A stretch of DNA of 64,000 nucleotides from Marchantia polymorpha subsp. ruderalis (lineage: Eukaryota > Streptophyta > Marchantiopsida > Marchantiales > Marchantiaceae). This document shows positions 1-38,000 of this stretch, one piece after another (within the stretch, counting starts at the first letter, position 1; every line of letters begins with the position of its first letter). Both the position numbers and the translations under genes were made by a program. The notes under the pieces were generated by a model, which saw only the letters and a list, made by a program, of their open reading frames with translations, was not told where the DNA came from and did not search any database. The DNA lies in the NCBI GenBank assembly GCA_037833965.1, contig AP031355.1, forward strand, positions 28,421,501 to 28,485,500, written 5' to 3'.

Positions 1-950
1 AGCTTTTGTATAGCTTGTTGTACATTGTCCCGTGGCTAGGTTGTGATGCGGTCCTGTCTCTGTTGAACGAGAGTTTTTGATTATTTCGTGTCACTTACTG
101 CAGTACCTGGGCAATAGTATACTTTTCGTACTCTGCAAACTAAGCAGAATATCATCTGGAAGAGAATATAGAACAAGCTTTTATCAGGCTCCGGACCTCT
201 GGAATAAAATTCAGATGGTCAAATAGGTGAAGAATCTATCCCGGCATGTCTTGACATAAGGTGAAGATGTGTTATGAGTTGTTGTAGTTCAGCGAGGAGG
301 TCTCTACAGTATGAGAGAAAAAAATAACAGGGACTATTCTGATGAGCAATGATAGAAAAATTATTCTTGTCATAAGTTCGCCAAAGACCTTCGCAAGTGA
401 GAGCAGTTTTTGCTGGCGCCCGAATTTGGCGGACTATGTCCAAATCAATCTGAGACAGTGTCACGAGACAATATAATCTTCTGCTGGTATCGCTTTTTTT
501 TTCTAATGAACATCTGTATCTGACATTCACAAATTATCTTTGAGACGTGAGATAATTCAGGTTATATATTTGGTCAGGGCCTGGGTCGAAGTTCTGATAA
601 CCTTCAGAATTCTGAACTCTTCTGAATTGAAACCGACTCCCACCAATGGATAGTGTTGCCCGAGCACTACATTTGAAAAATCTTTTACCTACAGAAAGCA
701 CCGGAGCCAAGTGTGTAAGAAGTGATGGGCAGACCCAATCGAGCACGATCGTAATTGGAAACTGTAAAATTCATTACAAACAAGAGGATGTTGACAATTA
801 CGTCAGGATCTTGCCCATTTGGTTTACGGTACTACTATAGACTTCATGCTTTGAGTAGTGGATGGAAAATCGGAAGCGTGAAGTGCAGGTGCTGCTTGGA
901 TTTGTCGAACTTCGCTTGACTTTTCTCTCCGTCGACCTTGTATCTTAAAT
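1..950. other. Unassigned left edge
   Basis: No gene, RNA or repeat was recognised. Short open frames exist on both strands, the longest about 100 codons on the minus strand at 219-530, but none shows a known motif or convincing codon use. The 5' end and any 5' LTR of the retroelement to the right could not be found here. Confidence 0.4.
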
Positions 951-1049
951 GGAGCTGCTTTTCACAACGGAGCATTGAATCAGGGTGGAGTCCTTACCAG
1001 CCCGACCAGCCATTGATCGTGAGAGGGTTGTTCCTGGTGTGTGTATGAT

Positions 1050-1780
1050 GGACAACAGGAGTGGTGTATTTTGCTTGGTGAGTGCTACAGGGCAGGTGTA
1101 TGTTCCAGGCAGAATGTTGCTTGATTCTAGTGCACAGCCCTTGATGTTGTAAAGACAGCCTCCATTGGTTTGGGAGTTCAGAGGTCCGAGTTGGAGCCTT
1201 GTCCATTCCAGATTCAGACATCACTCGGTGGCACCAGCGATAGGTCTTACATGATAACCAAAGAGCGCATATCAGTGCAATTGAGGCATGATCATGCTCA
1301 GGATAGCTCGCAGTTTGGAGTTTGTGCGGTGATTACATCAGCAAAGTCATACGATGTGCTTGTTGGTGAAGCCGTGTTATATCCGATGGGTTTTCGGATG
1401 GATTATTGGATAAAGACCGTTGCCTTACGTCTTGGTTGGCAGTCCGGCGATGGACGTATGAGCGAGCTGCCTGTGAGATTTATTTCAGGAGCTCGACCTC
1501 TTGGATTCTCTTCCGCGGTTCTGGAATCCGTTGCGGGTTTTAGCGGAGTGCTTACATGGCCCGATGACCTGTTGGAGGGGAACAGGTCATTCGACGACAC
1601 CTCAGTGTATGAGGATGTGGAGGAGGTGGTGAGTTTTGCAGCGGTAGTGTCTTCATCTTTGGATGTGCCACTTTGGAGTTCTTGCCATGCATTACAGCTG
1701 GAGGCTGATAGGTTGATGAAGAATGCTTGGAGTGAGGCCTCTTTACTAGCAGAGCCAAAGCGAGTCTCAGGTGGTCGGCT
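1050..1780 (+). pseudogene. Retropepsin-like region of the old Ty3 element
   Basis: The start of this stretch encodes an LDSSAQPL-like segment, resembling the LD(S/T)GA active-site segment of retroviral-type aspartic proteases. A region reading YDVLVGEAVLYPMGF follows, which resembles the conserved YD-VLG segment that ends Ty3 protease domains. The part after about 1430 is a linker of unknown function leading to the methyltransferase. Assignment rests on those two short motifs and on position just upstream of the other pol parts. It belongs to a fossil element and is not expected to act. Confidence 0.55.
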
Positions 1781-1859
1781 AGTATGTGTTCTAGCACGTT
1801 ATCACCATCGTATACATCGTATACATCGCTACACCTATCGTATGGGAGTATTCTCTAGA

Positions 1860-2880
1860 GGGTGTTTGTTTGCTGGATCTTTTCGGGAGGATCAGCAAGG
1901 GTTTGGCTGCAGTGTTGTAGTCAGGTATTCTTGTACGTAGATACTTGTACGTGGAGAAGGACGAGACTGCACGTCGAGTTTCTTCACGACATGTTATACA
2001 GTTAATGCAGTGTTTTCCTTTGCTGCTGCCGCAATCAGTTGTTCAAGGATATCAGAAGGCGTTGCCTTCAGACATTTCATTGTTGGGGGCGCCAGACCTT
2101 GATCGAGTTGGACATATTGATTTGGTGATTTCGGGATGGCCATGTCAGGGGCACACACGCGCCGGGCATGGAGCAGGGTTGCATGACCCGAGATCTTGGA
2201 TGTTTTGGGAGATGCTACGAGTGTTACGTCATCTCTAGGAGCAGCATACCCGTTCTCCAGCATACATCATAGAGAACGTACCATTGTTGGGTGACACTCG
2301 GACTTAGTAGATGACGAGTGTCCATGAGGTCAGGGCATGGATTGGATCAACAGTGTTGTTGGAAGCTGCGAGGGTTGGCTCGCGTGCTCGTCGTGCTTGT
2401 TTATGGTGGACCAACCTTGTGCCACGAGAAATATTGCGTCATGCGTATGATTCTGTGCATTGTGATCCTACACTCATCGTTGATAGGATCTTTGATGTCT
2501 CTCGATACTCTCAGGTGGTGAGAGTTGTTGACAGGTCACCTATGGCGTTGGAGAACCGCGTAGATCAGCCTCAGATGACTTTACCTACGTTGGTCAGTTA
2601 TCCGGCATCACATGCATATCGTGATGGTGGACCTGGACTCTTGTGTAACAATATCGTACATCAGTTGATGAAGCCCAACGCAGACGAGAGAGAGCTTGCG
2701 ATGGGATTTATGACAGGTGTGACCGCGGCTTCTTCAGTTTTAAAGGCGTCACGTTGTTAGGTTTTGGGTCAGGCAATGGACCTGAATTGCTTGACATGGA
2801 TCGTGAGCTTGGGCTTGGTCGAGCAACGCCGGTTGCGCGTTGATTTGGTGGTTGTTACACCACTTGTTAGCTCATTACCT
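1860..2880 (+). pseudogene. Cytosine-C5 DNA methyltransferase domain inside the Ty3 element
   Basis: Several conserved C5-methyltransferase motifs appear in linear order. There is a DLFG-type SAM-binding motif I near 1875, followed by YVEKDE (motif II, acidic residue). The catalytic motif IV reads SGWPCQGHTRAGHG with the PCQ cysteine near 2145. DPRSWMFWEMLRVLRHL follows. EAARVGSRARRACLWWTNL resembles the GS-x-x-R-R-x-x-W-x-N-L region of DNMT3-like enzymes. TLPTLVSYPASHAYRDGG and ERELAMGFMTG resemble the late motifs (IX and the substrate-positioning end), and the final LGQAMDLNCLTW resembles motif X (G-N-[AS]). Known role of the family: transfer of a methyl group from SAM to cytosine C5 through a covalent cysteine adduct. 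The non-permuted order argues against plant DRM. The domain is part of the broken element. Confidence 0.85.
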
Positions 2881-3179
2881 ACCGAACGATAGTGGCAATG
2901 GCTGGGGGCGACAGGCGAGATATTCGTCATCCTTGGAGTTCATGGGACGTGACGAGAGGACTTGCTAGAGTGGCCGCCCATGCAGTTGGAGATGTTGGTC
3001 ACGTGGAGGTTGCTAGGAAGGAGGGTACGGAGAGCCCTTCTTTGGAGGATGTGGCATAGCAACCAGTGACAGTATCACCTCCCTCTTGTGTGTACATGGA
3101 GGAGTAGTGGGAGCCATCGATTGCTTCTTAGATCACCGGAGGAGAGAGGCGACAGTTGACACAATTCCATAGTGACTAT

Positions 3180-4160
3180 AGGAGTTGTTTTGCCTTCAGT
3201 ATGAAGGAGTTGGGTACTTTGATTGGATCCGGCATACGGATAGAGTTGGCTAGTGATACGCCAATCTTCCGTCGTCCCTATCGATATAGTGATATGGAAA
3301 GGGACTTGATTCGGAGTCAAACGTTGGAGTTATTGGCGGCTGGGTTAGTGGAATTGTCACATGGTGAGTATGCTTCAGCCACTATTATGCCGGCAAAGAA
3401 TGATGCACATGGCAACTACACGGATAGGCGCATGTGTGGAGACTACCGTACTATCAATCGGCAGACGAAGGCCGATAAGTATGCCATGCCTACATCTAAG
3501 GAGATCTTCGATGTGGTGGAACATGCGAGGATGTTTAGTACTTTGGATCTTTGGGCAGGATACCATCAGTTGCCGATTCAGGAGGAGGACAAGGCCAAGA
3601 CAGCGTTTTGGGGTGTCAACTTTCACGGCAAGTATTGTTTGTATCAGTGGCGATTCTTATCCTTTGGGTTGAAGAATGCACTTGCCGAGTTCCACAGAAT
3701 GATGGACAAGATTCTAGCGGGGCTAGAGTTCGTTTGATGTTACATTGATGATATCTTGGTGTTTAGTGACACGGTGGAGCAACACCCGATACATTTGCAG
3801 ATTGTGCTTGAGCTGTTGAGGTCTCATGGTTTGCGGTTAGATCATGGGAAGTGTAGGTTTTTCCAGGAGAAGGTGGAGTACTTGGGTCATGTGATCTATC
3901 CATGTGGTTTGGGAGTTCAGCAAGCAAAGGTGGATGCTATTGCGCGCATTCCTTGTCCAGCGGATGTGAGTAGAGTTCGTGCATTCATGGATTTGCCGAA
4001 CTATTACCGGAGGTATGTAAAGGGATTCAGCGCTATAGCGAAGCCTTTGAACCAGTTGCTGAAGTCGGATCAGAAGTGGCAATGGGAAGATGAGCAGGAG
4101 AGAGCTTTTGTTGAGCTTAAGGCCAGGTTGGTGGCCGCTCCCATCTTGAGAAGACCTATC
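3180..4160 (+). pseudogene. Reverse transcriptase of the old Ty3 element
   Basis: The fingers and palm are recognisable. RMCGDYRTINRQT matches the Ty3 R-x-C-x-DYR-x-LN motif, FSTLDLWAGYHQLPI contains the first catalytic aspartate region (LDL-x-x-GYHQ), and CYIDDILVFSDT is the YIDD catalytic box. The downstream thumb segment reads FQEKVEYLGHVI and NYYRRYVKGFSAIAKPL, typical of Ty3/gypsy RT. The domain copies element RNA into DNA. Order and motifs place it firmly in Ty3/gypsy (Metaviridae). It is part of the broken element. Confidence 0.92.
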
Positions 4161-4169
4161 ACAGGTCGT

Positions 4170-4550
4170 CCATACTAGTTGCACACTGATTGGAGTATGT
4201 TGGGACTTGGAGCGGTTTTGACGCAGTGTGATGATGAGGGCAAGGAGTTCGTGGTTGTGTACGCTAGTCGTTCGAACAATGCAGCAGAGTCACGGTATAG
4301 TTCGTACGAGGAAGAGTGTTTGGCAGCGGTGTGGGCTATGGCACACTTCAGGTGTTACTTGTTTGGTACGCAATTTACCCTTGTTACCGATCATCAGCCG
4401 CTCAAGTCATTGATGGAGTCCGACAAGCTCACAGGGAAGCAGGCACGGTGGGCTCTTATCTTACAGGAGTACGACTTTAAGGTGGTGCATAGGCCTGGAG
4501 TTGCGAACCTGGATGCCGAACTTTTGAGTCGGAACCCATGCACTAGCTAG
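4170..4550 (+). pseudogene. RNase H domain of the old Ty3 element
   Basis: HTDWSMLGLGAVLTQ corresponds to the TDAS-x-x-G-x-GAVL-x-Q catalytic segment. ESRYSSYEEECLAAVWA corresponds to the Y-x-x-x-E-x-E glutamate region, and LVTDHQPLKSLM to the TDH-x-x-L aspartate motif. ARWALILQEYDF and VANLDAELLSR close the domain as in other Ty3 elements (ARW-x-x-x-L-x-x-Y-F; N-x-DALSR). It would remove RNA from the RNA-DNA hybrid during copying. It follows RT directly, as in all Ty3/gypsy elements. Confidence 0.9.
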
Positions 4551-4919
4551 GAGGATGACACTGGAGCTAGATGGCATGGTGAGGTTGATGAGGAGATGGT
4601 GTCTGGTTTGCATGCATCTGCCTTCATGTGTTGGTTACGTGGAGCCTCTAGCAGTGAGGACCACTTGACATCTTACTCTAGTCAGAGAGTAGATAGTCAG
4701 TTAGAGAGCAAATAGTCAGTCTTCGGATCCTGAGGTTGACGATGGTGGTGTGATCAACGTGATGTTCACGATGATGCCTTGGTGTTGGAGTTCCTACGGA
4801 CTAGTATGGTGTCAGGCACAATGGGTGCCAAGGAGCGAGATCGTGTTCTCCAGAGGGCGAAGAGATACCGATTGGAGAGATCACATGTTCTCTGAGTGTG
4901 GGAGGACGGTAGGGTACGA

Positions 4920-6057
4920 GTAGTACCCCATCCATCTCAGAGAGCACGCATTGTGAGGCATGCTCATGAGGAGTTGGGACATTTTGGAGTGAAGCGTACG
5001 TACAACTTACTCCTTGGTCAGTATTGGTGGCGTGGTATGCATACGCAGGTACAGCAGTTGGTATCACGTTGCATGGTTTGTGATCGAGTGAGGGCATCGT
5101 TCAATGCCGCGACAAAAAGAGTTACATCCCTTACCTATCATGCGATTGGATTACCGTTGGAGTTTAGACTTTGATGGACCACTACCTTTAACTGCACGAC
5201 ATCATCGATATGTGTTGATGATGGTGGATCATTTCTCCAAGTGGATTGAGTTGGTGGCACTACCTAACAAGGCGAGTGAGGGAGTAGCGTATGCTTTACT
5301 TGACAGGGTGCTTAGTCACTTTGGTGCACCAGCTGAGGTGTTGACCGATCAGGGGACAGAGTTTCAGGTGGAGTTTCAAGTCTTGTGTGACAAGATACTG
5401 ATTGATCACCGGACCGCATCTCGAGATCATCCAGAGGCGGATGGTTTGGCCAAGCGTGTTGTCCAGACGGTGAAGAGAGCGTTGCGCAAGTATGACCTAC
5501 AGAAGGGTCATCTTGAAGATTGAGATATTCAGGTTCCATGGCTGGCCATGGGATATTGATTCAGTCGTCAAGCATCCTTGGCTTCGTTCTCACCATATTT
5601 TCTATTGTACGGCCGAGATCCAGACTTGCTAGCAGCGATTCGTCGTGAGTCTAGTGAGGTGATGAACCTTGATGACTCAGACATGTGTGTGAGAGTGTGT
5701 TCTGAACGTGCAGCACTCTTTCGGAGAGTTATGCCTACAGCGTTTGAGAACCTTGCGATTGCTCAGCACAGGGATACGTTGCGGTATGCAACCATCCGAG
5801 GAGAAGGTTATAGATCATCAATTCGTAGGTTCCGTGTGAGAGACTACGTCTATTTACAGCAGACTGCACCAACTATGTTGGATGTGACGGCAAGACGCAC
5901 TATCTTGCGAGTGCGAGAGGTGTTACCTTCTGGAGTTCTCATGTTGGAGGGTCGTGACGGTGTCGTTTGGAAGGATCATGTGCGCAACTGTGCGCCATGC
6001 CACCTACCAAACGTGGATGGTGTTATGGATCCAAGCTTGGAGATTGTACGTGCATGA
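4920..6057 (+). pseudogene. Integrase of the old Ty3 element
   Basis: An H2C2 zinc-binding part is visible: HAHEELGHFGVKRTYNLL, then RCMVCDRVRAS. The catalytic core follows, with WSLDFDGPLPLTARHHRYV (first Asp), LTDQGTEFQVEF (second Asp) and DHPEADGLAKRVVQTVKRAL, which corresponds to the H-P-x-x-[DN]G-x-x-ER segment carrying the catalytic Glu in intact relatives. The C-terminal part contains SPYFLLYGRDPDL (the SP-x-x-LLYGR-x-P motif) and RRFRVRDYVYLQQ (the GD-x-V-x-L region). It would insert the cDNA into the genome. It is part of the broken element. Confidence 0.9.
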
Positions 6058-6192
6058 GGTGCATGTTATGTGGATAAGCTGATCAGGCAACCCATTTGTT
6101 GGTGTGTGATAGGTGTTCTAGTGGATGGCACATGTCGTGCTTAACTCCACCTATCGATGTTGTTCCTACTAGACGATGGATTTGTCCTTGAT
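6058..6192 (+). pseudogene. PHD-finger-like C-terminal module of the old Ty3 element
   Basis: Just after the integrase, the sequence encodes a full C4HC3 spacing: CMLC, then LLVCDRCSSGWHMSC, then LTPPIDVVPTRRWICP. The CD-x-C-x-x-x-[WY]H-x-x-C-L-x-PP pattern and the trailing W-x-C are hallmarks of PHD fingers, which read histone H3 tails. Chromoviruses carry a chromodomain in this position, which steers integration into certain chromatin. By analogy a PHD finger here could have had a similar job, which is inference. The module lies within the broken element. Confidence 0.7.
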
Positions 6193-6357
6193 GTACTTCA
6201 GAGGGTAGATGACTTGATCTTCACATTTTATGAATTGCAGATAGGCGACTAACGATGGGGCAACATAACACCCGACCTACTGATTTGAGCACCCACGAAG
6301 GTGCATAGCATGTAGTTGTAAACATGGCTACCTGGGAGCCAAAGGGACATGAACGTC

Positions 6358-6371
6358 ATCTAGAGGGGCGA
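6358..6371 (+). other. Purine tract before the 3' LTR of the old Ty3 element
   Basis: A purine-rich run (AGAGGGGCGAG) lies a few bases upstream of a TGTGATACC start. This is the normal layout of the plus-strand primer and LTR edge in LTR retroelements. The tract is short and has one pyrimidine, so the call is moderate. Confidence 0.4.
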
Positions 6372-6373
6372 GT

Positions 6374-6485
6374 TGTGATACCTTTGTGTGTGTACACTCT
6401 CGTTCCTTATGTATGTATGTGTGAGTTGTGAGTAGAGCATGTCAGCGATGTATGATGTATGGCGATACCGAGTCGCACGACAAAG
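6374..6485 (+). repeat. Truncated 3' LTR of the old Ty3 element
   Basis: The segment begins with TGTGATACC after the purine tract and holds GT-rich, moderately GC sequence before passing into AT-rich DNA. No matching copy was found upstream, so this is called from position only. The right edge is approximate. Confidence 0.35.
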
Positions 6486-9343
6486 AAAATGATGCTATAT
6501 TTATTAACAGCTGATGAGTGATCTTTGAAACTTTGAAACACAAAGTGAACTTGAGTTGAAGTTGATTAAATTTTTTCAACTATGATCATGAATATTTTTT
6601 GCTACTGACTTTTTTGACCTAAAAAGAATTACTTCAAAATCTTGTGATAAATTTCTATTGAAGCTTGTGAATTTTTTCTGAGTCATCTCATGATCATTGT
6701 TTTTTCGGGGAGAATTTTTTATATTAGCAATTTAATAATGATTAGATTTTTTTGTGAATAATGAAATTCAAACCTGTCTTCAATATAATTTATTTTTTGT
6801 TTCAAATTTGTCAAGTTGTTGAATTTTCACCATAAAGAGTTCATGACTACCAATACAAGATTTACTGTAGACTCTGGACCAAACTTCACAAATAAATGAA
6901 TCGATGTTTATAGTGATCTTAAAATATTTTGATAATTTGTATTGCTTGAAACTTCGTATGATATATCATAGTACAATATGTATTTCTTGTGTAATAAAAA
7001 ACCCGTCATAAATTTCAAAAAATTGCTCCAACTTCATGAGAATATTTGTTGATCTTCAAAGTTTACTTCAAAAAACTTTTATCAAGAAAAAAATATTTGA
7101 TAACAATGACTTATAGCGACTGTGACAAAGCTGTATCAGTCAATGCTATCTTGCAAGTTTAGCTGCTTATACCAATTTGTAATCGCTATTTTGCAATCAA
7201 ATTCAATGGAAATGAGTCAAAATTTAATGACAGATTTCAAGCTGCGAGTGTATTAGCAACTAGAGATGACTTGAACACTTTTGTTGCATTATCCTGGTTT
7301 CAATTACCCTCTTCTTGGTCATTCATATTACTTGATGATTCGTTCGTATCACATAGTTATCAACCTTGTACTTTAAGTTACATACAGAGATTTAGATCTT
7401 GCATAAAAAAGAAGCGGATTTGAGCTTGGTAATATCTTGGAAGATGTTACGACACGATTGATGGAGGTTATTATAGGTTTACCAAAGGTACTGAAGTGAT
7501 TATTAAAAGTGATTACCAATTGATCGGAAAATTTCATAAAAGTTTTTCTCATGATGTAGTTCTTCAAAGTACTAGGAAAGTTGAATGATATAGGATAAGG
7601 ATTCTACATTCTTCAGTCCACCTGTGGCTTTGAAATTGTTTATTACAGAATTTGAAATGTTTGAAGATGGTTGATTAAAGTGAGTTAAAGTGTGAATCGG
7701 TTGAATACATTCTGTTTTTCCTCTGTAATTATTTCTCCCAGTCAACAAACTATAGGTCTACAATTGGTAAGAGCGACTACTCTTCAGTTAGCTTTCACGA
7801 TATATTTGGACTAACTAGTTGGGAAAAGTTCCAAAGTCCCATCGTTTGCAACATTCACCGAAGGTGGAGACTGAAAATATAGGGAACACTTGATGTTACC
7901 TGCGCTATCTCTAGCTGATGCCAGTACGATCAGAAGTGATGGTGCTTCAGGAGGATGAGCTCTACTCTGAGTGCAACAAAGAGCAATGTCGCAATGTCCC
8001 ACAGTCCATCAGCAACTAGCACACATTAGCCCTCACGATGACCTTGAACTTTAAGTGATATTTATCTGATATTATACAAGGCCTCGACAAATTATCACCT
8101 ATTGCAGTAGTCATACCAAGCATACCACGAATAAACCTCCAGCAGCCTCCGCACCAGAGGCTTTCATCTTTCATCCCCCATGATATGCTTCTGATCCGGT
8201 GTGACATCAACCTGCTCTCCATCGTCGAGACTTCACAGCACTCGGGTTTCGCATCTGTCAAGATACATTCGCCATGAGGCGACTATAATGACTCGTCAAT
8301 CGACTGTTCTCCACGCACTTGTTATGTACGATGTGTGGGCGGGCTCAAGCGGTGTTGTCTTCGGACACAATCATCTGTCACTTCCGTGTCCAGTCTTGCA
8401 AAGGTTTCAATCGAGCCCCTCGTGCACTTGCTGGTCTAAGGTCAAGTCATTCCTGCTTTTACAGTCATAACACTTTCCATCTCTCCTTTAAGAATGATAT
8501 TGAAGTCTATGGCCTCCACGCCTCTAGTGTCTATCCAAAGATGCCCAGCAGTGCAGCGCTGATGTGCCCTCACATGATGTGTTTTGCTGTTGTAGATACA
8601 GCGATTGTCTCAGACATGGAAGAGTCATGTGCATCTAGAGGCTGGGAGGTTCGATATGAATAAAATCAGAATTACGAGGACCCGCTCGATCCCAAAGTTA
8701 CAATTTCAGGAGGAAGTAATCAAATTAGCCTCTAGCAACAACCGATATTCGCAGATTCTCGTACAGGCGACAGCTGGGTCCCTGCATTTGATTCAGCTCA
8801 GTCCAACTTTCATGTTAACAGCAGCTCAAGCATCCACGGGCTTCAAAAATTAATGGGCCCAACACCTTCATAGTACTCACCGATTTTGTGAAGTCACATC
8901 CATACTTCCATATGGACTCGCGGCGCCAAGAGAGACATGGGCGTCGTGTATCCGCCTCCGGCCACGGATTTCTGATTGTAGCTCAACGCGCAAAGCAGGC
9001 AAGTGTTAATTCTGCGTGTAAAACATGGGACCGAGCTATAGAACAAGAGCAGTTCCAGACAACCTCAAGGTGTTTGCCTCGAGTGAATCGTGGTTGTCAG
9101 ATTTATACAAGACTTATCATATATCCCACTGAAATACAAACACGTGTCGATCTAATTCACTTTGAGATTTGCCTCTCTTTCAAAAAATATATACACGAGA
9201 TTTTTTAGATTGATCGATATAATTTGTGAAAAGAAGGACCTCAAAACTGAGCTGCGTAGGGTGTAGTATGCAGAGAGGAGAGAGGAATGTGTGTACAGTC
9301 ATTTATTGTGGACTTGGAACGCCGTCGGATAGGCATGAGGTGG
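6486..9343. other. Unassigned AT-rich to mixed region
   Basis: 6486-7800 is strongly AT-rich with no convincing coding signal. 7800-9343 has mixed composition with short open frames of up to 114 codons that match nothing I recognise and overlap on both strands. No tRNA, LTR or splice-linked exon series was recognised. The AT-rich part could be an old decayed repeat, but I see no motif that names it. Confidence 0.35.
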
Positions 9344-22660: not shown

Positions 22661-25039
22661 CTACACGCCTGCACGGAACCACGCTACACTACACTCCGCG
22701 GAACCTGTGCTACGTCTCCTGCGCGACGGACTGCCGCGCACTAACTCCCTACCCTGCCAGTCTTCCGCTCGACTGCGCAGTCCCAATCGCTGCAACGCCG
22801 CGGACACCTCCACTTCGAGGGCGGACATGGTATCCTGCGCCTTCGACAGAAAAGCATCGAGCTTCTTTGCTACCTTCCGCCGACTCCTGCTGTCGCCTGA
22901 CAACAACCCGGCTGCGCGAAGTTCAAACTCACGCAGTGTGAGTTTCTCCTGCGCCGCCACTTCCCAGTGGGCGTAGCCCTTGAGACAGTGGGCGACACGC
23001 CTCGCCGTCTCCACCTTTGTGCGATCTGCCTCCTTCCTGCGATCCTCTTCAATTACCACTAATTGCGATTCGGCCTCAGCACGTTGCGCTCTCAATTCGC
23101 CACACTCTGACTGTAGCCTGCGGATTACCTCCTCATCCGCCTGCCGTGCGAGCTGACACTGTTCTAACAACCGCGTCTGTCGCACGAGCTCCTCTGACAA
23201 AATCCGATTCTGGGCCTGCTCAGAAATTAGTGCTTCTGTGACCTTCACCTGCTCCTTTGTGAGCTCTTCCAGTTTCCCATCCCTCACCTTCTCGGAATAC
23301 TTGTAGAATTTCTGATTGAGTTTATACTGAACCCACAAGCATTCATGCTTCTCCTTCAATTTCCTCAACTCCTGGTCCACTCTAGCTAGTAGCTTGCTGG
23401 TGTGGACTTTAGTGCGAGTCCGCCTACGCACTAACTCGATGTAAGATCCCGGCTGAAGTGGGTCGGCGTATTTATCGACTTTGCGATCCAAGTACCTTAG
23501 CAACGGAATCACCTGCTCAGAGAGCGCCGCCGCCGACGCTCCAACAATTTCCTCCTCCTCCTCCTCGGTGTCCCCTGCTCCTGACATTTCTTCGGTGGAG
23601 CCTCCGTCGTCATCATCCGAGTGGAGAATTTCAGTCGCCATTGATTGCGTTGGCGACTGACCCGAGTGGGGCTGCACGTCGTCGACGTGTGCTGCCTGCG
23701 AAGGCACGGCTGCAGCCTCGCTGCTCTTCGCCAAAATGTCTAAGGCGGTAGGCGAATGTGCCCGTGCTGCATTCCCGCCGCCCGCTTGTTGATCGTCAAC
23801 CGTATCCTCTCTACCGCCGACGTCCGCCGCCGAAGGCGATCGAGCGGAGGGTGGCTGCGCGGGGTTTGATTGCGCATCGCGCACCGAAAATTCATCCCGC
23901 GGACAGTCACTCCGCTCCTCCGCTAGTTGCTGCTCCCTTGATCGGCCTGCGGGGGCTGTGCTTGGTCTGTGCGCAGGCGCAAATGCCGGCACCTTGTCCG
24001 CCGCAGGCGTAGCGCCGCGGACATCCATCGCCAAAGGCGACATGGTCGGGGGCCGCTCGCCCGATGTCCCTTGGCCCTGAGGCCCTACCGCCGAAGGCGC
24101 ATCTACCGGCGGATTACCCGCCGATGGTGTGGCCTCCGCACACTCCCTGCTCGTATCTCCTCGGCTCGAAGGCCCTGGCGCCGAAGGCGCAAATCGCGGC
24201 GCGTGGTGCGCCAGAGGGTCTGGCCCCGAAGGCCGGTGTCTCGTAGGCGGCTCTTCCGCCGGCTCCTTCCCCTTCCTACGTTGGAACGGGGGTGATTCCT
24301 GCCTGTGCACAGGCGGCACGTGTGGAGGTGACCTGTGCACATGCGGACTGCTCCTTCCCACGCGTAAGCGTAGATCCACGTCCGCTTGTGATCGTCCGTC
24401 CGCGGAGGCTCGTCCGTGCGCAAACGGAACACCTGTCCGCAACGCACGTGGTAACTCCGGAGGCCCTTGGCCCGTAGGCGGCCTCTCGCCCGTCGAGGCT
24501 GCAGCGTGGTCCGTTGCTCCTGCGGACGTCCGCGCTTCCTCATGCTTCTCTGGCGACGCACTTCCTTTCTCCGTCGCAATCGTCGCCGTGTCCGCACTGT
24601 TGGCTGGTAACACCAGTCTGCGTGCCTTCTGCTTCGGCCGGCTGTATGACTCGTACAACGGCCGCGGTCGAATGGGAGCAGAGGGTTCTTGATGCTGCTC
24701 CTCTTCGGACTCTTCTCTCCATCGCCGCTTCCGCGGCACTCGTGCTGCAGGAGTGTTTCTCCCTTCGTCCCTCCGCCTTGATGGAGTAGAAGTCGGTGAC
24801 TCCTCTGCATCAGTGTCGACCTCATTCTCCCGCACATACTTCCCGGGATGGTCGACGGACAACGGCGGAAAACGCTCAAGCTCCGCCGCTGTCAAACAAT
24901 TCCGCTGTCGATAAAAATTGATGAGGAAAGGAGAGAGATGGTTTAGAGTTCCCCCCTTCTCCTCAAAAGCGTGCTGTCGCATCACCCTGTGCAGAATGCT
25001 CGCCCAGTGAATTGGAGTTCCCTCGATGACGCACTCCAC
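22661..25039 (-). CDS. Large unknown ORF, downstream (C-terminal) part
   Basis: An open frame of 792 codons runs to a TAG at 22661-22663. It has no ATG at its upstream edge: it stays open up to the retroelement junction at 25045, so it is the downstream part of an ORF split by that insertion. The first 60 residues look folded (GTPIHWASILHRVMRQHAF). Residues about 65-480 are low-complexity, rich in Pro, Arg, Ser, Ala and acidic runs, and probably disordered. Residues about 490-730 form a long predicted coiled coil rich in Glu, Lys, Gln and Leu (QELRKLKEKHECLW; ILSEELVRQTRLLEQCQLAR). Function is not recognised. From memory it resembles large repetitive-family ORFs in liverworts. It could be a host gene or a structural protein of an unclassified element. 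Confidence 0.6.
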   Translation of the reverse strand: MECVIEGTPIHWASILHRVMRQHAFEEKGGTLNHLSPFLINFYRQRNCLTAAELERFPPLSVDHPGKYVRENEVDTDAEESPTSTPSRRRDEGRNTPAARVPRKRRWREESEEEQHQEPSAPIRPRPLYESYSRPKQKARRLVLPANSADTATIATEKGSASPEKHEEARTSAGATDHAAASTGERPPTGQGPPELPRALRTGVPFAHGRASADGRSQADVDLRLRVGRSSPHVHRSPPHVPPVHRQESPPFQRRKGKEPAEEPPTRHRPSGPDPLAHHAPRFAPSAPGPSSRGDTSRECAEATPSAGNPPVDAPSAVGPQGQGTSGERPPTMSPLAMDVRGATPAADKVPAFAPAHRPSTAPAGRSREQQLAEERSDCPRDEFSVRDAQSNPAQPPSARSPSAADVGGREDTVDDQQAGGGNAARAHSPTALDILAKSSEAAAVPSQAAHVDDVQPHSGQSPTQSMATEILHSDDDDGGSTEEMSGAGDTEEEEEEIVGASAAALSEQVIPLLRYLDRKVDKYADPLQPGSYIELVRRRTRTKVHTSKLLARVDQELRKLKEKHECLWVQYKLNQKFYKYSEKVRDGKLEELTKEQVKVTEALISEQAQNRILSEELVRQTRLLEQCQLARQADEEVIRRLQSECGELRAQRAEAESQLVVIEEDRRKEADRTKVETARRVAHCLKGYAHWEVAAQEKLTLREFELRAAGLLSGDSRSRRKVAKKLDAFLSKAQDTMSALEVEVSAALQRLGLRSRAEDWQGRELVRGSPSRRRRSTGSAECSVAWFRAGV

Positions 25040-25044
25040 AAAAG
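25040..25044 (+). repeat. 5-bp target site duplication, left
   Basis: AAAAG, repeated exactly at 31107-31111 after the 3' LTR. A 5-bp duplication is normal for Ty3/gypsy integrases. Confidence 0.92.
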
Positions 25045-25129
25045 TGTAACCATCTTTAGTTAGTTAGAACTAAAGTAGAGGTTACTCTGAATATGGATGT
25101 AGATACTTTAGTGTGCACTAGTCATAGCT

Positions 25130-26061: not shown

Positions 26062-26078
26062 AGGTATTGTGAGAAAGC

Positions 26079-27242
26079 ATGGGAACATCAATTGATATGG
26101 GTGAGGTTCTCAATGCAATCATGGCAGAGATGAAGGAGTTGAGAAAAGCAATAGTAGATGGGCATACCAAGCAGCAAGCCATGGAAGATAAAATCTTCGC
26201 ATTAGAGAGTGAGAAAGTAGAGAGAGAGAGAGTTGGAGAGATGGAAGTTGAACCTCAAGTTCAAGCTTCTCAAGTTCAGCCAGAACCAACTCCTATTGAT
26301 GCAGCAGAGGCAAATAGGAGACGTCTTCAAGAGATTGAAGATCAAGCAAATCTTTTGCTTCGAATGGGAAAATCCTGTAAGGTGGAAGCTTACAAAGGGA
26401 GTAGAGCAATGGGAGTGTTAGAGGGATGGATTATGAGGATGAATATTCATTTATCCCATTTTCATGTTTCTGATTATATTGCAAGAATGTTCATGAGATC
26501 TTATCTTACGGATAAGACTCTCACATGGTACACAACATGGGAGAGAATGCTTTCAGAACGAGGTGCTACCATTTCGTGGAGTGGAATGCAAGAAGGACTT
26601 CTGCAAAATTTTCAAGCGGTGGATTCTCTTCAAACTGCAAGAATGAAGTTGTGGGATTTGAAGCAGAAAGGAGGTATTCATGAGTACATTGAAGAATTTC
26701 GTGATCTTCAAGTATCTATCATGGATATGAGTGGAGCTGAAGCCTTGGACGTGTTCAAACGAGGCTTGAAAGATCAAATTCGAAAGGAGGTGATGGTAAG
26801 CAATCCATCTACTGTGAATGAAGCAATCGCAATTGCTCAACGAATTTCAGGTGCTTTTGGTGTCACACACGGTGAACCAGTGAGCAATTTTAGAGATCCA
26901 TCTGGTCCAACACCGATGGAGTTGGGAAATCTTCGACGTAGAGAAGGTTTTGCACCAACAAGAGGACCACCACCAAGATTTGGAGGTGAGATTAGGCGAC
27001 CAGGAGTTCCAAATTTGCAAGAAGGGTATGCAAATAATGGAATGGTTCGAGGAGGAGCTGGAGTTCGTGACAATCGCCAATGCTATGCATGTGGACGAAT
27101 GGGTCACATAGCCAAGTTTTGTCGAGTTCGGCCGACACAACAAGGAGGACGGCCCATGCAGCGACGACCGTTCAACAATATGGAGGGGATAGAGTATGAA
27201 GAGGTGGAGGAAGCAGTTTCGGGAAACGAAGATCACCAGTAA
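26079..27242 (+). CDS. gag of the young chromovirus (387 aa)
   Basis: This is the structural protein of the element. Residues about 10-75 are helical and charged. Residues about 105-265 resemble the Retrotrans_gag capsid domain ([54 protein letters not shown]). A Gly/Pro/Arg-rich stretch then leads to one CCHC zinc knuckle, [14 protein letters not shown], near residue 340, which binds RNA. The tail is acidic. Gag and pol lie in different frames, so pol expression would need a recoding step or another route. Confidence 0.93.
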
Positions 27243-27244
27243 TC

Positions 27245-30200
27245 TTGCCTCGCGACCTTACTGGTTCTACAAAGCGAAGAAAAGGCGAGGTTGGAAGAAG
27301 GCAATGGTTGGGAGCTCATGGAAGGAGTAAGAAGCAAGCTCAACTCATTGTCACTGATGGTTTCATGGAAGGACACAAGGTGAGAGTTTTAATTGATCCT
27401 GGAGCAACTGAGAATTTTCTATCAAGGAGTGTTGCTATGAAGTTAGGTTTGATGTTGATGAAGGACGTGAGTGAAGAAGTTGAATTGCCAAACGGGCAAA
27501 CTGAAGTGATAGAAACACTACCACGGAGTGTAGAATTATCCATAGGTAGATACAAGGAGAGCATTGAATGGAGAGTAATTCGTTTAGCTCGATATGATGT
27601 CATCCTTGGAATGCCATGGATGGAACAATATAATCCGAAGGTAGATTGGAGAAGAAAAGTGATTACAAGTAGTGGATGGAAGATCTATGGAGATAGAATT
27701 AGATCTCAGAATAGGAATTTACCCCTCTTTGTGATGGGTACAGCATCCATTTCTAGAGATGATGTATGTTTCCTTGGACTTATAAGAGATATTGGGTCCA
27801 CGGACAAACCTTACATCCCGGAGTCCTTGAAGGACATTTTTATGGAGTATAAAGATGTTTTTCCAGATGATCTACCTGCAGGATTACCACCAAAGAGGCG
27901 AGTAGATCACAAGATTGAGGTGATACCTGGAAGTACACCAACTTGCAAAGCTCCATATCGTTTGGCTCCAAACGAATTGGAAGAATGCAAAGCTCAAGTG
28001 GAGGAGATGTTGAGCAAGGGATTCATTCAACCAAGTGTTTCACCTTATGGAGCTCCAGTACTCTTTGTGAAGAAGAAGGATGGATCCATGAGACTATGTA
28101 TCGATTATCGCGGGTTGAATCAGCAAACGGTGAAAAACAAATATCCATTACCTCGTATGGATGATTTGTTTGATCAACTTCAAGGAGCGAAGTACTTCAC
28201 CAAGCTAGATTTGAGAAGCGGCTACAATCAAATTCGAATTGCAGATGAAGATGTTCACAAGACAGCTTTTCGTACTAGGTATGGACACTTTGAGTATCTG
28301 GTGATGCCTTTTGGTCTCACTAATGCACCAGCTACATTCATGGGATTGATGAACGATATCTTTTGCCCTTATCTAGATAAATCTGTCATTGTTTTTCTAG
28401 ATGATATATTGGTGTATAGCAAAACTTTGAGTGATCATAGAAGTCATTTACGAGAGGTACTTCAAGTTTTGAGAGACAATCAATTGTATGCCAAAGCTTC
28501 AAAATGTGAATTTGGCAAGTCAGAAGTAGATTACTTGGGTCATAGAGTTACAGCTACAGGAGTCCAAGTGATGAGTGAGAAGATAGATGCCATTCAGAAA
28601 TGGATAGCACCTGAGGATCAAACTCAATTGAAAAGTTTTCTAGGGCTCACTGGATTCTATCGTAGATTTGTGAAAGGTTTTGCTCGACTAGCTCAGGCCT
28701 TGACTTCCATGTTAGGGAAAGGTCAAAAGTGGAGATGGGGAACAGCTCAAGAGTTAGCTTTTCAAGCATTGAAAGATGCTTTGTTACACGCACCTATTCT
28801 CAAGTGGTATGATCCTAACCGTTCTATCAAGTTGGCCACTGACGCATCAGGTACAACAGTAGGTGGCATACTTCAACAAGAATGGGAGGATGGATGGCAT
28901 CCAGTTGCTTTCTATTCTCGAAAGTTGGTGGCGGCGGAACAAAATTATCACACGACAGAACGAGAGGAGTTAGCTATCGTGTTGGCAACCAAACATTGGA
29001 AGCATTATTTGGGTGATAAGGAGTTTGTGGTGGAGACTGATCATAAACCCTTGGTTTATTTGGAAACTCAGAAGGATCTGTCCAAACGACAAATTCGATG
29101 GGCAGAGTGGCGTCAACGCTTCAACATGAAGATTGTGTACGTGGAGGGAAAGAAGCAACTTGCGGATGCTCTCACACGCATGCCTTGTTTGAATCATGTT
29201 GCAGAAGTGAAAATTCAGGCGGATTGGTGGAGCAAGATGTCACAAGCCACAAAGGAGGATGAAGAGATCACTCGGGCACTACAAACTGGAAAGGCTGAGA
29301 AATCTCGAGGTTTGGCGTTTTACAATCAGCGTATATGGATTCCACAAGATCACGATTTGCGCACAATGATTTTGGCAGAAAGTCATGATACAGCCATTGC
29401 AGGTCATGTGGGAGTGGAGAAAACCGTGGAGAGTATACAACGAGTGTACTATTGGCCCAAAATACGTGAGGATGTGGAGTCTTATGTTCGAAGTTGTGTT
29501 GCTTGTCAACAAAACAAGGCAAGTAATCAAAAACTAGCGGGTTTATTACAGCCTCTTCCTATTCCCGAACAGCGGTGGGAACATGTCACCATGGATCTTG
29601 TATGTGAGTTACCAAGGACTTCGTTAGGACATGATTCAGTGGTGGTTTTTGTGGACAAATTGAGCAAGATGATTCACATCAGGCCAACCACAAAAACAGT
29701 AACAGCTCCACAACTAGCTCAATTGTATCTAGATGCAGTTTTTGTCAATCATGGCTTAAGCAAAGTGTTAATCACGGATAGAGGTACTCACTTCACTAGT
29801 TTATTTTGGAAAACTTTGTTTAGTTTTTTCAAAACAAAACTAGCAATGTCCACGGTCTATCACCCTCAAACTGATGGACAAACTGAGAGGGCAAATAGAA
29901 CCATAGAGGATATGCTACGAGCATTCACATTAGAAGAGCAAGAAGAGTGAGACAACCTTTTGCCACTTGTGGAATTTGCATATAACAATTCTGTTAATGC
30001 ATCCACAAAAGTGTCTCCATTTTTTCTTATGTATGGAGCTCATCCGATAACTCCTTCACGTTTGATGAGACTTCCCAAAGGAGAGGAGTTTTCGACCAAA
30101 GTTGCAGCAGTCAACGAATTCGTGGAGCATATTCACCGAGGACTACATCAGGCCAAGGAGAAGTTGGTAATAGCTCAAAATCGGCAAAAGCAGCATGCCG

Positions 30201-30673
30201 ATGCTCATCGTAGAGAAGTGATTTTTGAGGTTGGAGATCATGTTTGGTTATCTACAACGAATCTGTCTCTTGTAGGAACACCAAAGTTAAACCCTAGGTT
30301 CATCGGTCCATTTTTGGTTTTCAAGCGTGTTGGTGAAGTGTCATACAAGTTGGAACTTCCGTCACATATGAAAATACATCCAGTATTTCATGTGTCACGA
30401 TTGCGAAAACATGTACCACGACCAAAACAATTCACCAACCAACCAGCACCACCTCCTCTTCCAACCTTGATAGTAGATCATGAGGAGTTTGAGGTAGAAA
30501 AGATACTCAAGAAACGAATTCGAGGTCATAAATATCCCAAAGTAGAGTATTTGATTCAATGGAAAGGCTATCCATCGTATGAATCAACTTGGGAACCAGC
30601 TAAAAATTTAGCAAATGCACCTTTGATAGTTCAGGAGTTTGAACGTATGTGCAACGAGGACGTTGCATCTTAA
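27245..30673 (+). CDS. pol of the young chromovirus: PR-RT-RH-IN-chromodomain
   Basis: Protease: [13 protein letters not shown] is the active-site segment and [10 protein letters not shown] the closing motif. Reverse transcriptase: [27 protein letters not shown] and [14 protein letters not shown]. RNase [18 protein letters not shown] and [11 protein letters not shown]. Integrase: zinc part [14 protein letters not shown] and SCVACQQNK; core [24 protein letters not shown] and [16 protein letters not shown]-terminal [11 protein letters not shown] and VGDHVWLST. Chromodomain: [32 protein letters not shown]. Together these copy the RNA, cut the precursor and insert the cDNA, with the chromodomain expected to guide integration to methylated-histone chromatin. 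The region looks nearly whole, with about one break. Confidence 0.95.
30470..30660 (+). other. Chromodomain of the young chromovirus
   Basis: [15 protein letters not shown], then [21 protein letters not shown]. The Y-x-x-WKGY-x-x-x-x-x-TWEP-x-x-NL pattern is diagnostic of chromodomains and defines the chromovirus branch of Ty3/gypsy. Confidence 0.94.
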
Positions 30674-35026: not shown

Positions 35027-38000
35027 TAGGTGAAACTTGGCAATCAAGTATTTAAAATTTGCAAAAATGTAATGCAAATAATGGAATGGTTTGAGTATGG
35101 GAGGTACTTCGTGACAATCATCAATGCTATGCATGAAGACGAATGGATCATATTGTCAAGTTTTGCAAAATTTGACCAACATCATAAAGAAAAAGGTCCA
35201 TACAGCAACGACCGTTCCATAACATGGAGGGCATAGAGTATGAAGAAGTTGAGGAAGAAATTTTGGAAAACAAAAATCATCAATAAACTTGGCTTGTGGC
35301 CCTACTGATTTCACAAAACAAAGAAAAAGTGAGGTTGAAAGAAGACAATGATTGAAAGTTCATGGAAAGAGTAAGAAGCAAACTCAATTCATTTTTGCAT
35401 ATGATTTGATGAAAGTAAACAAGGTGAAAGTTTTGATTCATCTTGGAGCAACAAAGAATATTTTTTTCAATGACTGTTGCTATGAAGTTAGGTTTGATGT
35501 TGATAAAGTATGTGAATGAGTAAATTGAATTGCCAAACAGTCAAATTGAAATGACAAAAACACTACAACGGAGTGTAAAACTATCAATATGTAGATACAA
35601 TGAGAGCATTGAATGAAAAGTAATTCACTTAGCTCATATGATGTCATCATTGGAATGTCATGGATGGAGTTATATAATCGGGAGATAGATTGGAGAAAAA
35701 AAGTGACAACAAATAGTGGTTGAAAGATCTATGGATATAAAATTGGACCTCAGAGTAAAAGTTTATCACTCTTTGTGATGTATAAAACATCACTTTCTAG
35801 AGATGATGTTTTTTTTATATATAAAAAATATTAGATACACTAACAAACTTTATATACCGGAGTCCTTGAATGACATTTTTATGTAATATGAAGATACTTT
35901 CCTAGATGATCTACCTGTAAGATTAGCACCAAAGAGACGAGTAGATCACAAGATTGAGACGATACTTGGAAGTACACCAACTTGCAAACCTCTATATAGT
36001 TTGACTCCAAACGAATTGGAAGAATACAAAACTCAAATTGAGTAGATGTTGTGCAAAAGATTCATTCAACCAAGTATTTAATTTTATGGAGCTCCAGTTC
36101 TCTCTGTGAAGAAGAAATATGAATCCATGAGACTATGCATTGACTATCATAGGTTGAATCAACAAACGGTGAAAAATAAATATTCTTGTATGTATGATTT
36201 GTTTGATCCAACTTCAAGGAGCAAAGTACTTCACTAAACTAGATTTGAAAAACAACTATATTTAAATTTGAATTGCATATGTAGATATCCACAAGACTAT
36301 GTTTTGTACTAGGTATGAACACTTTGAGTATCTAGTGATGCCTTTTGATCTCATTGATGCACTAGCTACATTCATAGGATTGATGAACGATATTTTTCAT
36401 CTTTATCTAGATAAATCTCTCATTGATTTTTTAGATGTTTTTCTATTGGTGTATGGCAAAATTTTGAATGATCATAGATGTCATTTACGAGAAATACTTC
36501 AAGTTTTCAAAAAAAATCAATTGTATGTCAAAGCTTCAAAATGTGAATTTGGCAAATGGAAAGTAAATTACTTGAATTATAGAGTTACAAGCGCAGAAAT
36601 CCAAGTAACGACAAAGAATATAGAAAACTTTCCTAAATGGATAGCACTAGAGTATCAAACTCAATTAAAAAATTTTCTAAGACTCATTAGTTTCTATCGT
36701 AAATTTGTGAAAGACTTTGCTCGTCTAGCTCAAGTCTTGACTTCCATGTTAGAAAAAGGTCAAAATTGAAGATGAGCAAGAATTCAAGATTTAGATTTGT
36801 AAACATTATAAAATGATTTGTCACACGGACCTATATTCAAGTGATATGATCATAACCTTCCTATCAAGTTGGTTATTGATGCATCATGTATAACGGTGAG
36901 TGACATACTTCAACAAGAATGTAAGGAATGGAACATGTTATAGATGGAAACATGTCACCCTGGATCTCGTATGTGACTTACCAAAAACTTCGTTAGAAAA
37001 TAAGTCAATGATGATTTTTGTGTACAAATTGAGCAAAATAATTCACATCAGGCCAATCACAGAAATAATGTCGCCTCCACAACTTACTCAATTGTACTTA
37101 GATGTTACTTTTGTGAATCATGAATTAAATAAAGTCTTAATTACAAATAGAGATATTTATTTCACTAGTTTGTTTCGGAAAACTTTGTTCGGTTTTTTCA
37201 AAACCATATTAGCAATATCAATAGCTTAAACAAAGAATAGATAATATGCTACGTGCATTCACATTAGAGTAGCAACAAGAGTGATATAATTTTTTGACTC
37301 TTGTGAAATTTGCTTACAAAATTTTTTTAAATAAATCCAGGAAGATATTTCCATTTTACCTCAAGTAAGGTGGTACTTCCATTATTACATCAAGTTTGAT
37401 AAATATTTCAAAATGAGAAAAATTTGAAACTAAAATATCCACGGTTAACGAATTTATGGAACATATCCACAGAAAGCTACATCAAATAAAGGAAAAGTTT
37501 GTTGATTGCTCATGTTCAATAAAAATAGCATTTTTATGCTCATCGTCAAGAGTTGATTATTTAGGTTGGGTATCAGATTTGATTATCTACAACAAATTTG
37601 ATTCTTGTAAAAATACCAAAGTTTAATTCTATATTTATTGGTAATTTTGTAATATAAAAACGTGTTAATGAAATGTCATACAAATTGTAATTTCTGTCAC
37701 ATAGGAAAATGTATCCTGTATTTTAGGTGTCACGATTGCAAAGACATGTAACACGATCAAAAGAATTCAAAGACCTTCAAGTATTATTTTATTTACCAAC
37801 ATTGATAATTGATCATGAAAAATTTGAGTTAAAAAATATACTTAAAAAACGGATTTGAGGCCATAAGTATCCAAAGTTTGAATATTTGGTTCAATAGAAT
37901 TAATATACATACTACAAGTACACTTGAAAATTTTTAACTAATGCATCGTTAATAGTTCAAGAATTTAAACGAATGTGTAAAGAGATCATTATATCTTAAA

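What the first reader, a model, noticed from the sequence alone, without database searches (positions are those of the whole stretch)
950..6485. Ty3/gypsy element carrying a cytosine-C5 DNA methyltransferase between protease and reverse transcriptase
Motifs I, II, IV (PCQ), the GS-x-x-R-R-x-x-WTNL block and the late motifs of a DNMT3-like C5 methyltransferase lie in linear order inside one retroelement, flanked by protease and RT-RH-IN. Methyltransferase capture by retroelements is rare. An element that could methylate its own DNA might escape or shape host silencing, for example by maintaining tolerated methylation. The order argues for one ancestral pol polyprotein rather than chance neighbours. 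The element here is a fossil, so activity would have to be judged in other copies.
Basis: partly seen in the sequence, partly recalled or inferred. Interest (0 to 1): 0.88.

Follow-up and report, generated by a model that had tools for sequence, protein, structure and literature searches.

The report
Liverwort retrotransposon encoding a DNA methyltransferase
A broken copy of a liverwort jumping gene carries its own DNA-methylating enzyme and a chromatin-reading domain, and less damaged relatives in the same genome and elsewhere show that this is a real, conserved kind of element.

Summary
Confirmed and extended. Window 983-6482 (+) is a decayed Ty3/gypsy copy in what is Marchantia polymorpha or a near relative. 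The genome holds well over 100 related copies; 20 fetched copies have an open gag-PR-DNMT frame (~1,360 codons). An in-frame UAG-CAA-YYA, the TMV-type readthrough context, separates it from RT-RH-IN-PHD (~1,042 codons); a relative with 48% DNMT identity has it too. The methyltransferase is under purifying selection (dN/dS 0.13) and models like DNMT3A/B. Ends are split direct repeats (A1...B1-A2-B2) with perfect 4-bp target duplications in 7 of 7 copies checked. Retroelement DNMTs form one clade apart from host DNMT3, with two domain positions. The kind is known: KnitGypsy-Dnmt3 of Klebsormidium (de Mendoza 2018), with similar repeats. New, as far as my searches show: the liverwort family, DNMT on the gag frame before a readthrough-type stop, the PHD partner, the duplications, the one-clade tree. 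Self-methylation of element DNA is inferred, not shown.

The parts
983..6482 (+). remnant of the Ty3/gypsy element (sub-family B): end of gag frame to 3' terminus
   Evidence: 90.9% DNA identity to sub-family B copies over 983-6482
985..1480 (+). protease region (broken frame)
   Evidence: DNA identity to copies; the region in a representative copy models as a retropepsin; no Pfam hit on the window pieces themselves
1861..2808 (+). DNMT3-like cytosine-C5 methyltransferase, with in-frame stops at 1918, 2236, 2305, 2308 and 2758
   Evidence: PF00145 E=1.4e-6 on 1921-2235; frame read; motifs I, IV (WPCQ), VI (ENV), VIII (GSRARR..WTNL) by eye
3057..3059 (+). conserved in-frame UAG (context UAG CAA CCA) between the DNMT frame and the RT frame; inferred readthrough stop
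   Evidence: listed among the 77 sub-family B junctions; alignment
3132..4175 (+). reverse transcriptase (one stop inside, at 3735-3737)
   Evidence: RVT_1 E=1.8e-10 and 7.2e-13
4179..4547 (+). RNase H
   Evidence: RT_RNaseH E=1.8e-34
4896..5520 (+). integrase: H2C2 zinc-binding and DDE core, frame broken
   Evidence: Integrase_H2C2 9.1e-18, rve 5.1e-14
5560..6054 (+). integrase C-terminal region
   Evidence: no Pfam hit; homology to the copies' ORF2
6060..6188 (+). PHD finger (a stop at 6075-6077)
   Evidence: PF00628 E=4.5e-9 on 6078-6188
6371..6482 (+). terminal repeat B, ending ...CACGACA
   Evidence: 95.5% identity to B2 of two sub-family B copies; printed
6483..6486 (+). 3' flank AAGA, against AGGA before the 5' terminus outside the window: decayed 4-bp target duplication (3 of 4 bases)

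Best explanation
The window holds a dead copy of a Marchantia Ty3/gypsy family that encodes gag-protease-DNMT on one frame and RT-RNase H-integrase-PHD on the next, joined by readthrough of UAG-CAA-YYA. Shown by sequence: domain order, conserved stop and its context, purifying selection on DNMT and PHD, complete catalytic residues, 4-bp target duplications at the ends of a split-repeat element, recent insertions. Inferred, in order: most translation stops after DNMT, so the methyltransferase is made and packaged at Gag level, while RT-IN-PHD is made in the minority; the packaged DNMT methylates the element's new cDNA before or at integration; the integrase-linked PHD finger steers insertion to chromatin with unmodified H3K4, where methylated DNA is tolerated. 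The element would thus enter already marked as host-like silent DNA and avoid defences or damage aimed at unmethylated foreign DNA.
For: Anatomy. Stop: TAG followed by CARYYA in 20 of 20 fetched copies; TAG in 98 of the 100 listed of 172 sub-family A junctions and in 74 of 77 sub-family B junctions; in both patterns the stop codon was left free but the bases after it were part of the pattern. TAG CAA TCA in L043, a relative with 48% DNMT identity found without that pattern, again followed in frame by a 1,047-codon RT-RH-IN-PHD frame. RNA after the stop folds better than shuffles in L016 (z -3.85) and L043 (z -4.77 over 142 nt). Selection between sub-families: DNMT dN/dS 0.13, PHD 0.16. Catalytic Cys, ENV Glu and motif VIII Arg in 20 of 20 copies; integrase DDE and PHD zinc ligands in 15 of 15. 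DNMT3 fold. 4-bp duplications 7 of 7. DNMT and PHD on one protein in 9 distant relatives. Another element DNMT, SymbioDIRS-Dnmt3, methylates CG in yeast (PMC5890265, section 10 read).
Against: No activity, packaging, readthrough or histone binding was measured. The KnitGypsy-Dnmt3 domain, the nearest published case, gave no methylation in yeast (judged inconclusive there; PMC5890265 section 10). RNA structure after the stop is not clearly better than shuffles in L023 (z -1.23) or the window (z -0.40). The 12 codons between the stop and the first Met of ORF2 are poorly conserved in amino acids between sub-families (by eye), so re-initiation is not excluded. The window copy's decay shows excess C-to-T at CHG as well as CG, which points to host silencing; a CG-writing element enzyme would not explain the CHG part. 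Other RT-bearing families with long open frames are plentiful in this genome, so a DNMT is not needed to spread there.
Confidence: 0.45

Rival explanations
1. Self-restraint: the element's DNMT methylates its own integrated copies and helps the host silence them, holding copy number down and so protecting host and element.
For: Purifying selection on the DNMT; the fossil shows methylation-type decay at CG and CHG; a related idea is raised in the discussion of PMC5890265 (read).
Against: Needs selection at the level of the lineage; the host already has its own DNMT3 and DRM (L001, L002). CHG decay is better explained by host enzymes. The family has recent copies.
Confidence: 0.2
2. The domain is kept for a role other than DNA methylation: RNA methylation, or a nucleic-acid-binding part of the particle.
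For: It lies on the gag frame downstream of zinc knuckles and an RGG stretch (by eye), where an RNA-binding function would fit; RNA methylation is suggested for SymbioLINE-Dnmt in PMC5890265 (discussion read).
Against: Catalytic Cys, ENV Glu and motif VIII Arg are kept in 20 of 20 copies; among 46 retroelement DNMTs of the tree a simple pattern finds the Cys motif in 42, EN[VTA] in 45 and motif VIII in 43 (misses include rows with gaps). The fold matches DNMT3 entries.
Confidence: 0.2
3. ORF2 is not made by readthrough but by re-initiation or from a separate RNA, so the DNMT has no fixed ratio to RT-IN.
For: Amino acids between the stop and the first Met of ORF2 are poorly conserved.
Against: UAG with CARYYA is kept in a relative with only 48% DNMT identity; the frames abut with no gap in the 15 of 20 copies whose ORF2 is uninterrupted; relatives exist as one predicted protein of 2,358-2,531 residues (domain order in these not checked).
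Confidence: 0.15
4. Chance neighbours or a recent capture of the Marchantia host DNMT3.
Against: ORF1 with DNMT followed by the RT frame in the fetched copies, DNMT with PR, RT or IN in the relatives; host DNMT3 of Marchantia and Diphasiastrum fall outside the 46-row retroelement clade, support 100/100.
Confidence: 0.02

Closest known systems
KnitGypsy-Dnmt3 of Klebsormidium nitens (de Mendoza et al. 2018, PMC5890265; abstract, sections 9-11 and passages seen; figures not held)
   Same: Dnmt3-type, unrearranged DNMT inside an LTR gypsy element; repeats described there as DIRS-like with gypsy domains; purifying selection on the DNMT (Ka/Ks < 0.2 there, 0.13 here)
   Different: Described as part of the Pol polyprotein ORF; PHD is not mentioned in the main text (0 occurrences), and the sections I read mention no readthrough stop and no target duplications. 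I could not obtain its sequence, so membership of the same DNMT clade is untested.
SymbioDIRS-Dnmt3 and SymbioLINE-Dnmt of dinoflagellates (same paper)
   Same: Retroelement with captured DNMT; SymbioDIRS-Dnmt3 methylates CG in yeast
   Different: DIRS and LINE elements, reported as unrelated to the gypsy case
DNMT3A/DNMT3B
   Same: Fold and linear motif order
   Different: About 20% identity; fused to gag-protease; ADD and PWWP of animal DNMT3 (recalled, also stated in PMC12344493, passages) not found by Pfam in ORF1
Chromoviruses (for example the element at window 26073-30670)
   Same: gag-PR-RT-RH-IN with a chromatin reader at the integrase end (chromodomain)
   Different: PHD finger in place of the chromodomain; DNMT; conserved stop before RT; split repeats
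PAT/DIRS split-direct-repeat retrotransposons (recalled; search listing only)
   Same: A1...B1-A2-B2 repeat layout
   Different: Those use a tyrosine recombinase and make no target duplication (recalled); here DDE integrase and 4-bp duplications

Membership tests
Ty3/gypsy (Metaviridae) | PR-RT-RH-IN order with DDE integrase | tested here: met
   DDE residues in 15 of 15
Ty3/gypsy (Metaviridae) | identical LTRs at both ends | tested here: not met
   split repeats A1...B1-A2-B2 instead; L012 and the window copy have A1 at one end and a single B at the other
Ty3/gypsy (Metaviridae) | short target-site duplication and TG...CA ends | tested here: met
   perfect 4 bp in 7 of 7 copies checked, of 20 fetched; 3 of 4 bases in the window copy
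DIRS/PAT elements | split direct repeats | tested here: met
DIRS/PAT elements | tyrosine recombinase, no target duplication | tested here: not met
   rve integrase and 4-bp duplications; the leader was not searched for a recombinase
DNMT3 | C5-MTase motifs in linear order with DNMT3 fold | tested here: met
   PDB sequence best hit with the whole ORF1 is DNMT3A, 2.5e-7
DNMT3 | groups with cellular DNMT3 in a tree | tested here: inconclusive
   separate, long-branched clade; midpoint root only
DNMT3 | de novo DNA methylation activity | not testable with these tools
   none
DNMT-encoding gypsy (KnitGypsy-Dnmt3 kind) | Dnmt3 domain inside the coding region, multiple copies, purifying selection | tested here: met
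DNMT-encoding gypsy (KnitGypsy-Dnmt3 kind) | common descent with the K. nitens elements | not tested
Type I (TMV-type) stop-codon readthrough | UAG followed by CARYYA | tested here: met
   motif described in PMC3542737 (passages)
Type I (TMV-type) stop-codon readthrough | measured suppression of the stop | not testable with these tools
   none

The most novel reading that the evidence does not exclude
An old lineage of plant and algal retroelements carries a writer-reader pair: a DNMT made at Gag level ahead of a programmed readthrough stop, so that every particle methylates its own cDNA, and a PHD finger on the integrase that lands it in H3K4-unmodified chromatin. The lineage arose once, moved its DNMT between two positions in the polyprotein (before RT, or between RNase H and integrase), spread through green lineages, and replicates by a split-repeat, junction-templated cycle that nevertheless uses a DDE integrase.
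Probability: 0.3. Interest if true: 0.85.

Novelty: new variant of a known kind. Interest (0 to 1): 0.62.

Why it matters
Why a retroelement would keep an enzyme of the kind usually used against it is an open question. This family is in a genetically tractable model plant or its near relative, has young copies, and carries features that make specific tests possible: the ratio set by the UAG, the catalytic Cys, the PHD target, and the methylation state of fresh insertions. As far as I found, it also widens the range known for gypsy elements from one charophyte to a liverwort, a Sphagnum gene model, a partial green-algal match and many environmental sequences.

Tried and rejected
Chance neighbours and recent host capture: rejected. 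First look for ordinary LTRs at both ends of the fetched 10-kb stretches failed; the 5' repeat lies 3.4 kb (L011) and about 3.7 kb (L016, from the coordinates) upstream of ORF1. An early idea that GCGATGGAGATC is the true 5' terminus was dropped when A1 was found further upstream; it looks like a switch point between alternative leaders. One scan of viral contigs (query P0022) gave no relative. RVT_1 over the genome was filled by other RT families. The homolog search with host DNMT3 (120 of 5,382 listed) returned mostly nameless or bacterial/phage-type enzymes; 12 of the 120 served as outgroup. The DNMT model's best match in the viral library was a phage methyltransferase, E 5.1e-15, weaker than the DNMT3 entries. 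Rfam: no match in window or L043. The PDB search with the window piece 1921-2235 listed HaeIII, HhaI and a tRNA methyltransferase and no DNMT3. Papers: 10 searches listed no description of a Marchantia DNMT retroelement or of a PHD finger native to a Ty3 polyprotein; these are word searches of open-licence papers, so subscription papers and preprints are not covered. Passages only were seen of PMC6453930, PMC11244446, PMC12344493 and PMC3542737.
Full report
What is in the window. Stop-free pieces score against Pfam in the order DNA_methylase, RVT_1, RT_RNaseH, Integrase_H2C2, rve, PHD. Window 983-6482 aligns at 90.9% DNA identity with copies of one sub-family (B: L023, L027, L028) and at 86.9% with sub-family A (L016, L009). 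The 3' end is the 112-bp terminal repeat B (6371-6482). The 5' terminal repeat A1 begins about 900 bases before the window; flanks read AGGA and AAGA, an imperfect 4-bp duplication. The alignment to the copies starts within their ORF1, so most of the gag part is missing or unrecognisable, and the DNMT frame has stops at 1918, 2236, 2305, 2308 and 2758.

Where it is. The window is G000:C6:28421501-28485500 of a 241-Mb, 9-contig genome. P0003, named by its source as Mp_8g17980 of Marchantia polymorpha subsp. ruderalis, has a 100% identical match there in two pieces. The host is therefore M. polymorpha or something very near it.

Copies. PF00145 gives 123 scored matches of 290 candidates in that genome, including at least two host genes: L001 is host DNMT3, L002 is host DRM with the rearranged motif order (classes by eye). 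24 of the 123 rows lie in open frames of 1,351-1,365 codons; I fetched 20 of these 24. Junction patterns give 172 sites for sub-family A and 77 for sub-family B, with none for the reversed control patterns; the two sets may share a site or a few.

Anatomy of the copies. All 20 have ORF1 of 1,351-1,365 codons; 15 of 20 have an uninterrupted ORF2 of 1,042 or 1,045 codons directly after ORF1's stop and in the same frame, the other five a broken or interrupted one. ORF1 of the copy used as yardstick carries a weak gag match (E 0.012, below Pfam's cut-off), zinc knuckles and an RGG stretch (by eye), a protease region (RVP_2 only E 0.24; model pLDDT 76, best PDB matches retropepsins) and DNMT (PF00145 1.5e-9). 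ORF2 carries RT, RNase H, integrase and PHD. Sub-family B copy L027 gives the same order, without a protease match. Catalytic residues of DNMT and protease are kept in 20 of 20 copies, those of RT, integrase and the PHD zinc ligands in 15 of 15 (in one search my first choice of integrase Glu was the wrong position, corrected).

The stop. It is TAG followed by CARYYA in 20 of 20. Over the genome, TAG stands in 98 of the 100 listed of 172 sub-family A sites (the others TAA and CAG; 72 are not listed) and in 74 of 77 sub-family B sites (two TAA, one TAT). The bases after the stop belong to both patterns, so their conservation there is partly built in; within the mismatches allowed, 71 of the 77 sub-family B sites keep CARYYA. 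CARYYA is the motif described for TMV-type readthrough (PMC3542737, passages). L043, a contig filed under a cyanobacterial assembly, has a DNMT 48% identical, TAG CAA TCA after it, and in frame a 1,047-codon RT-RH-IN-PHD frame. RNA after the stop folds better than shuffles in L016 (z -3.85), L027 (-2.50) and L043 (-2.08 over 105 nt, -4.77 over 142 nt), but not clearly in L023 (-1.23) or the window (-0.40); the structures are not alike in sequence. Relatives predicted as one protein of 2,358-2,531 residues exist (P0177, P0180, P0183, P0184, P0191; order not checked), and 18 environmental proteins (P0019-P0036) end 97-182 residues after the DNMT, as ORF1 does (some ends could be contig ends). 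Readthrough is thus well supported as inference; re-initiation is not excluded.

The ends. The layout is A1 (about 292 bp), leader of 3.4 kb in L011 and about 3.7 kb in L016, ORF1, ORF2, B1 (119 bp), GC, A2 (about 293 bp), B2 (119 bp). Termini are TGTCATG...CACGACA. In 7 of 7 copies for which I fetched both ends (of 20) the flanks are perfect 4-bp duplications. A1 and A2 of a copy match at 292/292, 293/293, 294/295, 270/270, 288/294 and 290/293 (six copies), so several insertions are recent. GC stands between B1 and A2 in the 16 copies in which one search shows that junction; it looks like a joined-ends junction with two extra bases from which the two termini could be regenerated; this is inference. 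L012 has A1 and a single B with a perfect duplication.

Selection. Between sub-families, NG86 dN/dS is 0.13 for DNMT, 0.15 gag, 0.24 the RGG/linker part, 0.19 PR, 0.15 the linker before DNMT, 0.53 the stretch after DNMT, 0.05 RT, 0.04 RNase H, 0.08 IN, 0.04 the integrase C-terminal part and 0.16 PHD (64 pairs for ORF1, 26 for ORF2). Within sub-family A the ratios are mostly higher (DNMT 0.25, PHD 0.41), as expected once copies drift after insertion. The copies were chosen for open frames, which biases against nonsense but not missense changes.

Relatives. The DNMT region finds 54 proteins and, from a distant relative, 35, of which 17 are new: M. polymorpha gene models, Sphagnum fallax (50%), a partial match in Monoraphidium neglectum, and many nameless environmental proteins. 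Among the first 54, two orders occur: DNMT before RT (type I) and DNMT between RNase H and integrase (type II). Ten rows count as type II (P0041-P0049 and P0051): in eight RNase H is seen before the DNMT, and two (P0042, P0044) are fragments that start at the DNMT and run into integrase. Of 13 rows that reach the integrase C-terminal region, 9 show the PHD; two of the other four end right there. In a tree of 61 rows (9 of the 54 hits dropped for a DNMT span under 250 residues; the 17 new ones not included), the 46 retroelement DNMTs form one clade (100/100) and type II is one clade (100/99); host DNMT3 of Marchantia and Diphasiastrum, DNMT3B and 12 other enzymes lie outside. Branches are long and the root is by midpoint, so the deep origin within DNMT3 is not settled. 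No row named Klebsormidium appeared, so I cannot say whether KnitGypsy-Dnmt3 shares this capture.

Fold and class. The DNMT model (pLDDT 92.7) matches DNMT3A/3B/3C entries in all 50 listed of 201 PDB rows with E <= 0.001, TM-score by target length about 0.8 for catalytic-domain entries. PDB sequence search with ORF1 puts DNMT3A first (2.5e-7). The PHD finger's nearest PDB sequences include CHD4, KMT2D, PHF12, DPF3, PHF21A and KDM5B; several of these read unmodified H3K4 (recalled), hence the guess about targeting.

Decay. Against three sub-family B copies the window has 197 private C>T or G>A changes and 79 of the reverse kind; rates are 0.121 at CHG, 0.088 at CG and 0.052 at CHH. That fits a long-methylated copy, with host CG/CHG enzymes the likely cause. 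Two younger copies had too few private changes (31 and 40) to compare.

Known or new. DNMT capture by a gypsy element with DIRS-like repeats was reported for K. nitens in 2018 (PMC5890265). A 2025 paper repeats that some DNMT3 members lie in retrotransposons, naming Copia and DIRS (PMC12344493, passages). In the searches listed under Tried and rejected I found no account of the liverwort family, the readthrough-type stop, the PHD partner, the target duplications, or the single clade with two DNMT positions. Hence: new variant of a known kind.

Noticed in passing
window 26073-30670 (+): A nearly unbroken chromovirus: gag with Ty3 capsid, PR-RT-RH-IN, SH3 and chromodomain; the last frame is separated by one stop.
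   Followed up: partly
window 22664-25063 (-): 800-codon open frame without any Pfam match at E 0.01, GC-rich; by eye its C-terminal half looks like a charged coiled coil.
   Followed up: partly
window 36272-36766 (+): Fragment of another reverse transcriptase (RVT_1 5.1e-9).
   Followed up: no
L009-L028, upstream of ORF1: At least two alternative leaders joined at about the same point (GCGATGGAG); one carries a small open frame (133 codons stop-to-stop in L011) and an A-rich tract.
   Followed up: partly
L018: A second stretch of the element's 5' part directly after the first copy, at a period of about 8.3 kb.
   Followed up: no
L014: Three B units at the 3' end, an extra junction unit.
   Followed up: no
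L043 (CADCWO010000201.1): Apparently eukaryotic retroelement DNA filed in an assembly labelled Synechococcales cyanobacterium: contamination or misbinning.
   Followed up: partly
P0041-P0049, P0051: DNMT placed between RNase H and integrase; several of these run on for hundreds of residues after the PHD.
   Followed up: partly
L001, L002: Host DNMT3 and host DRM of the same genome.
   Followed up: yes
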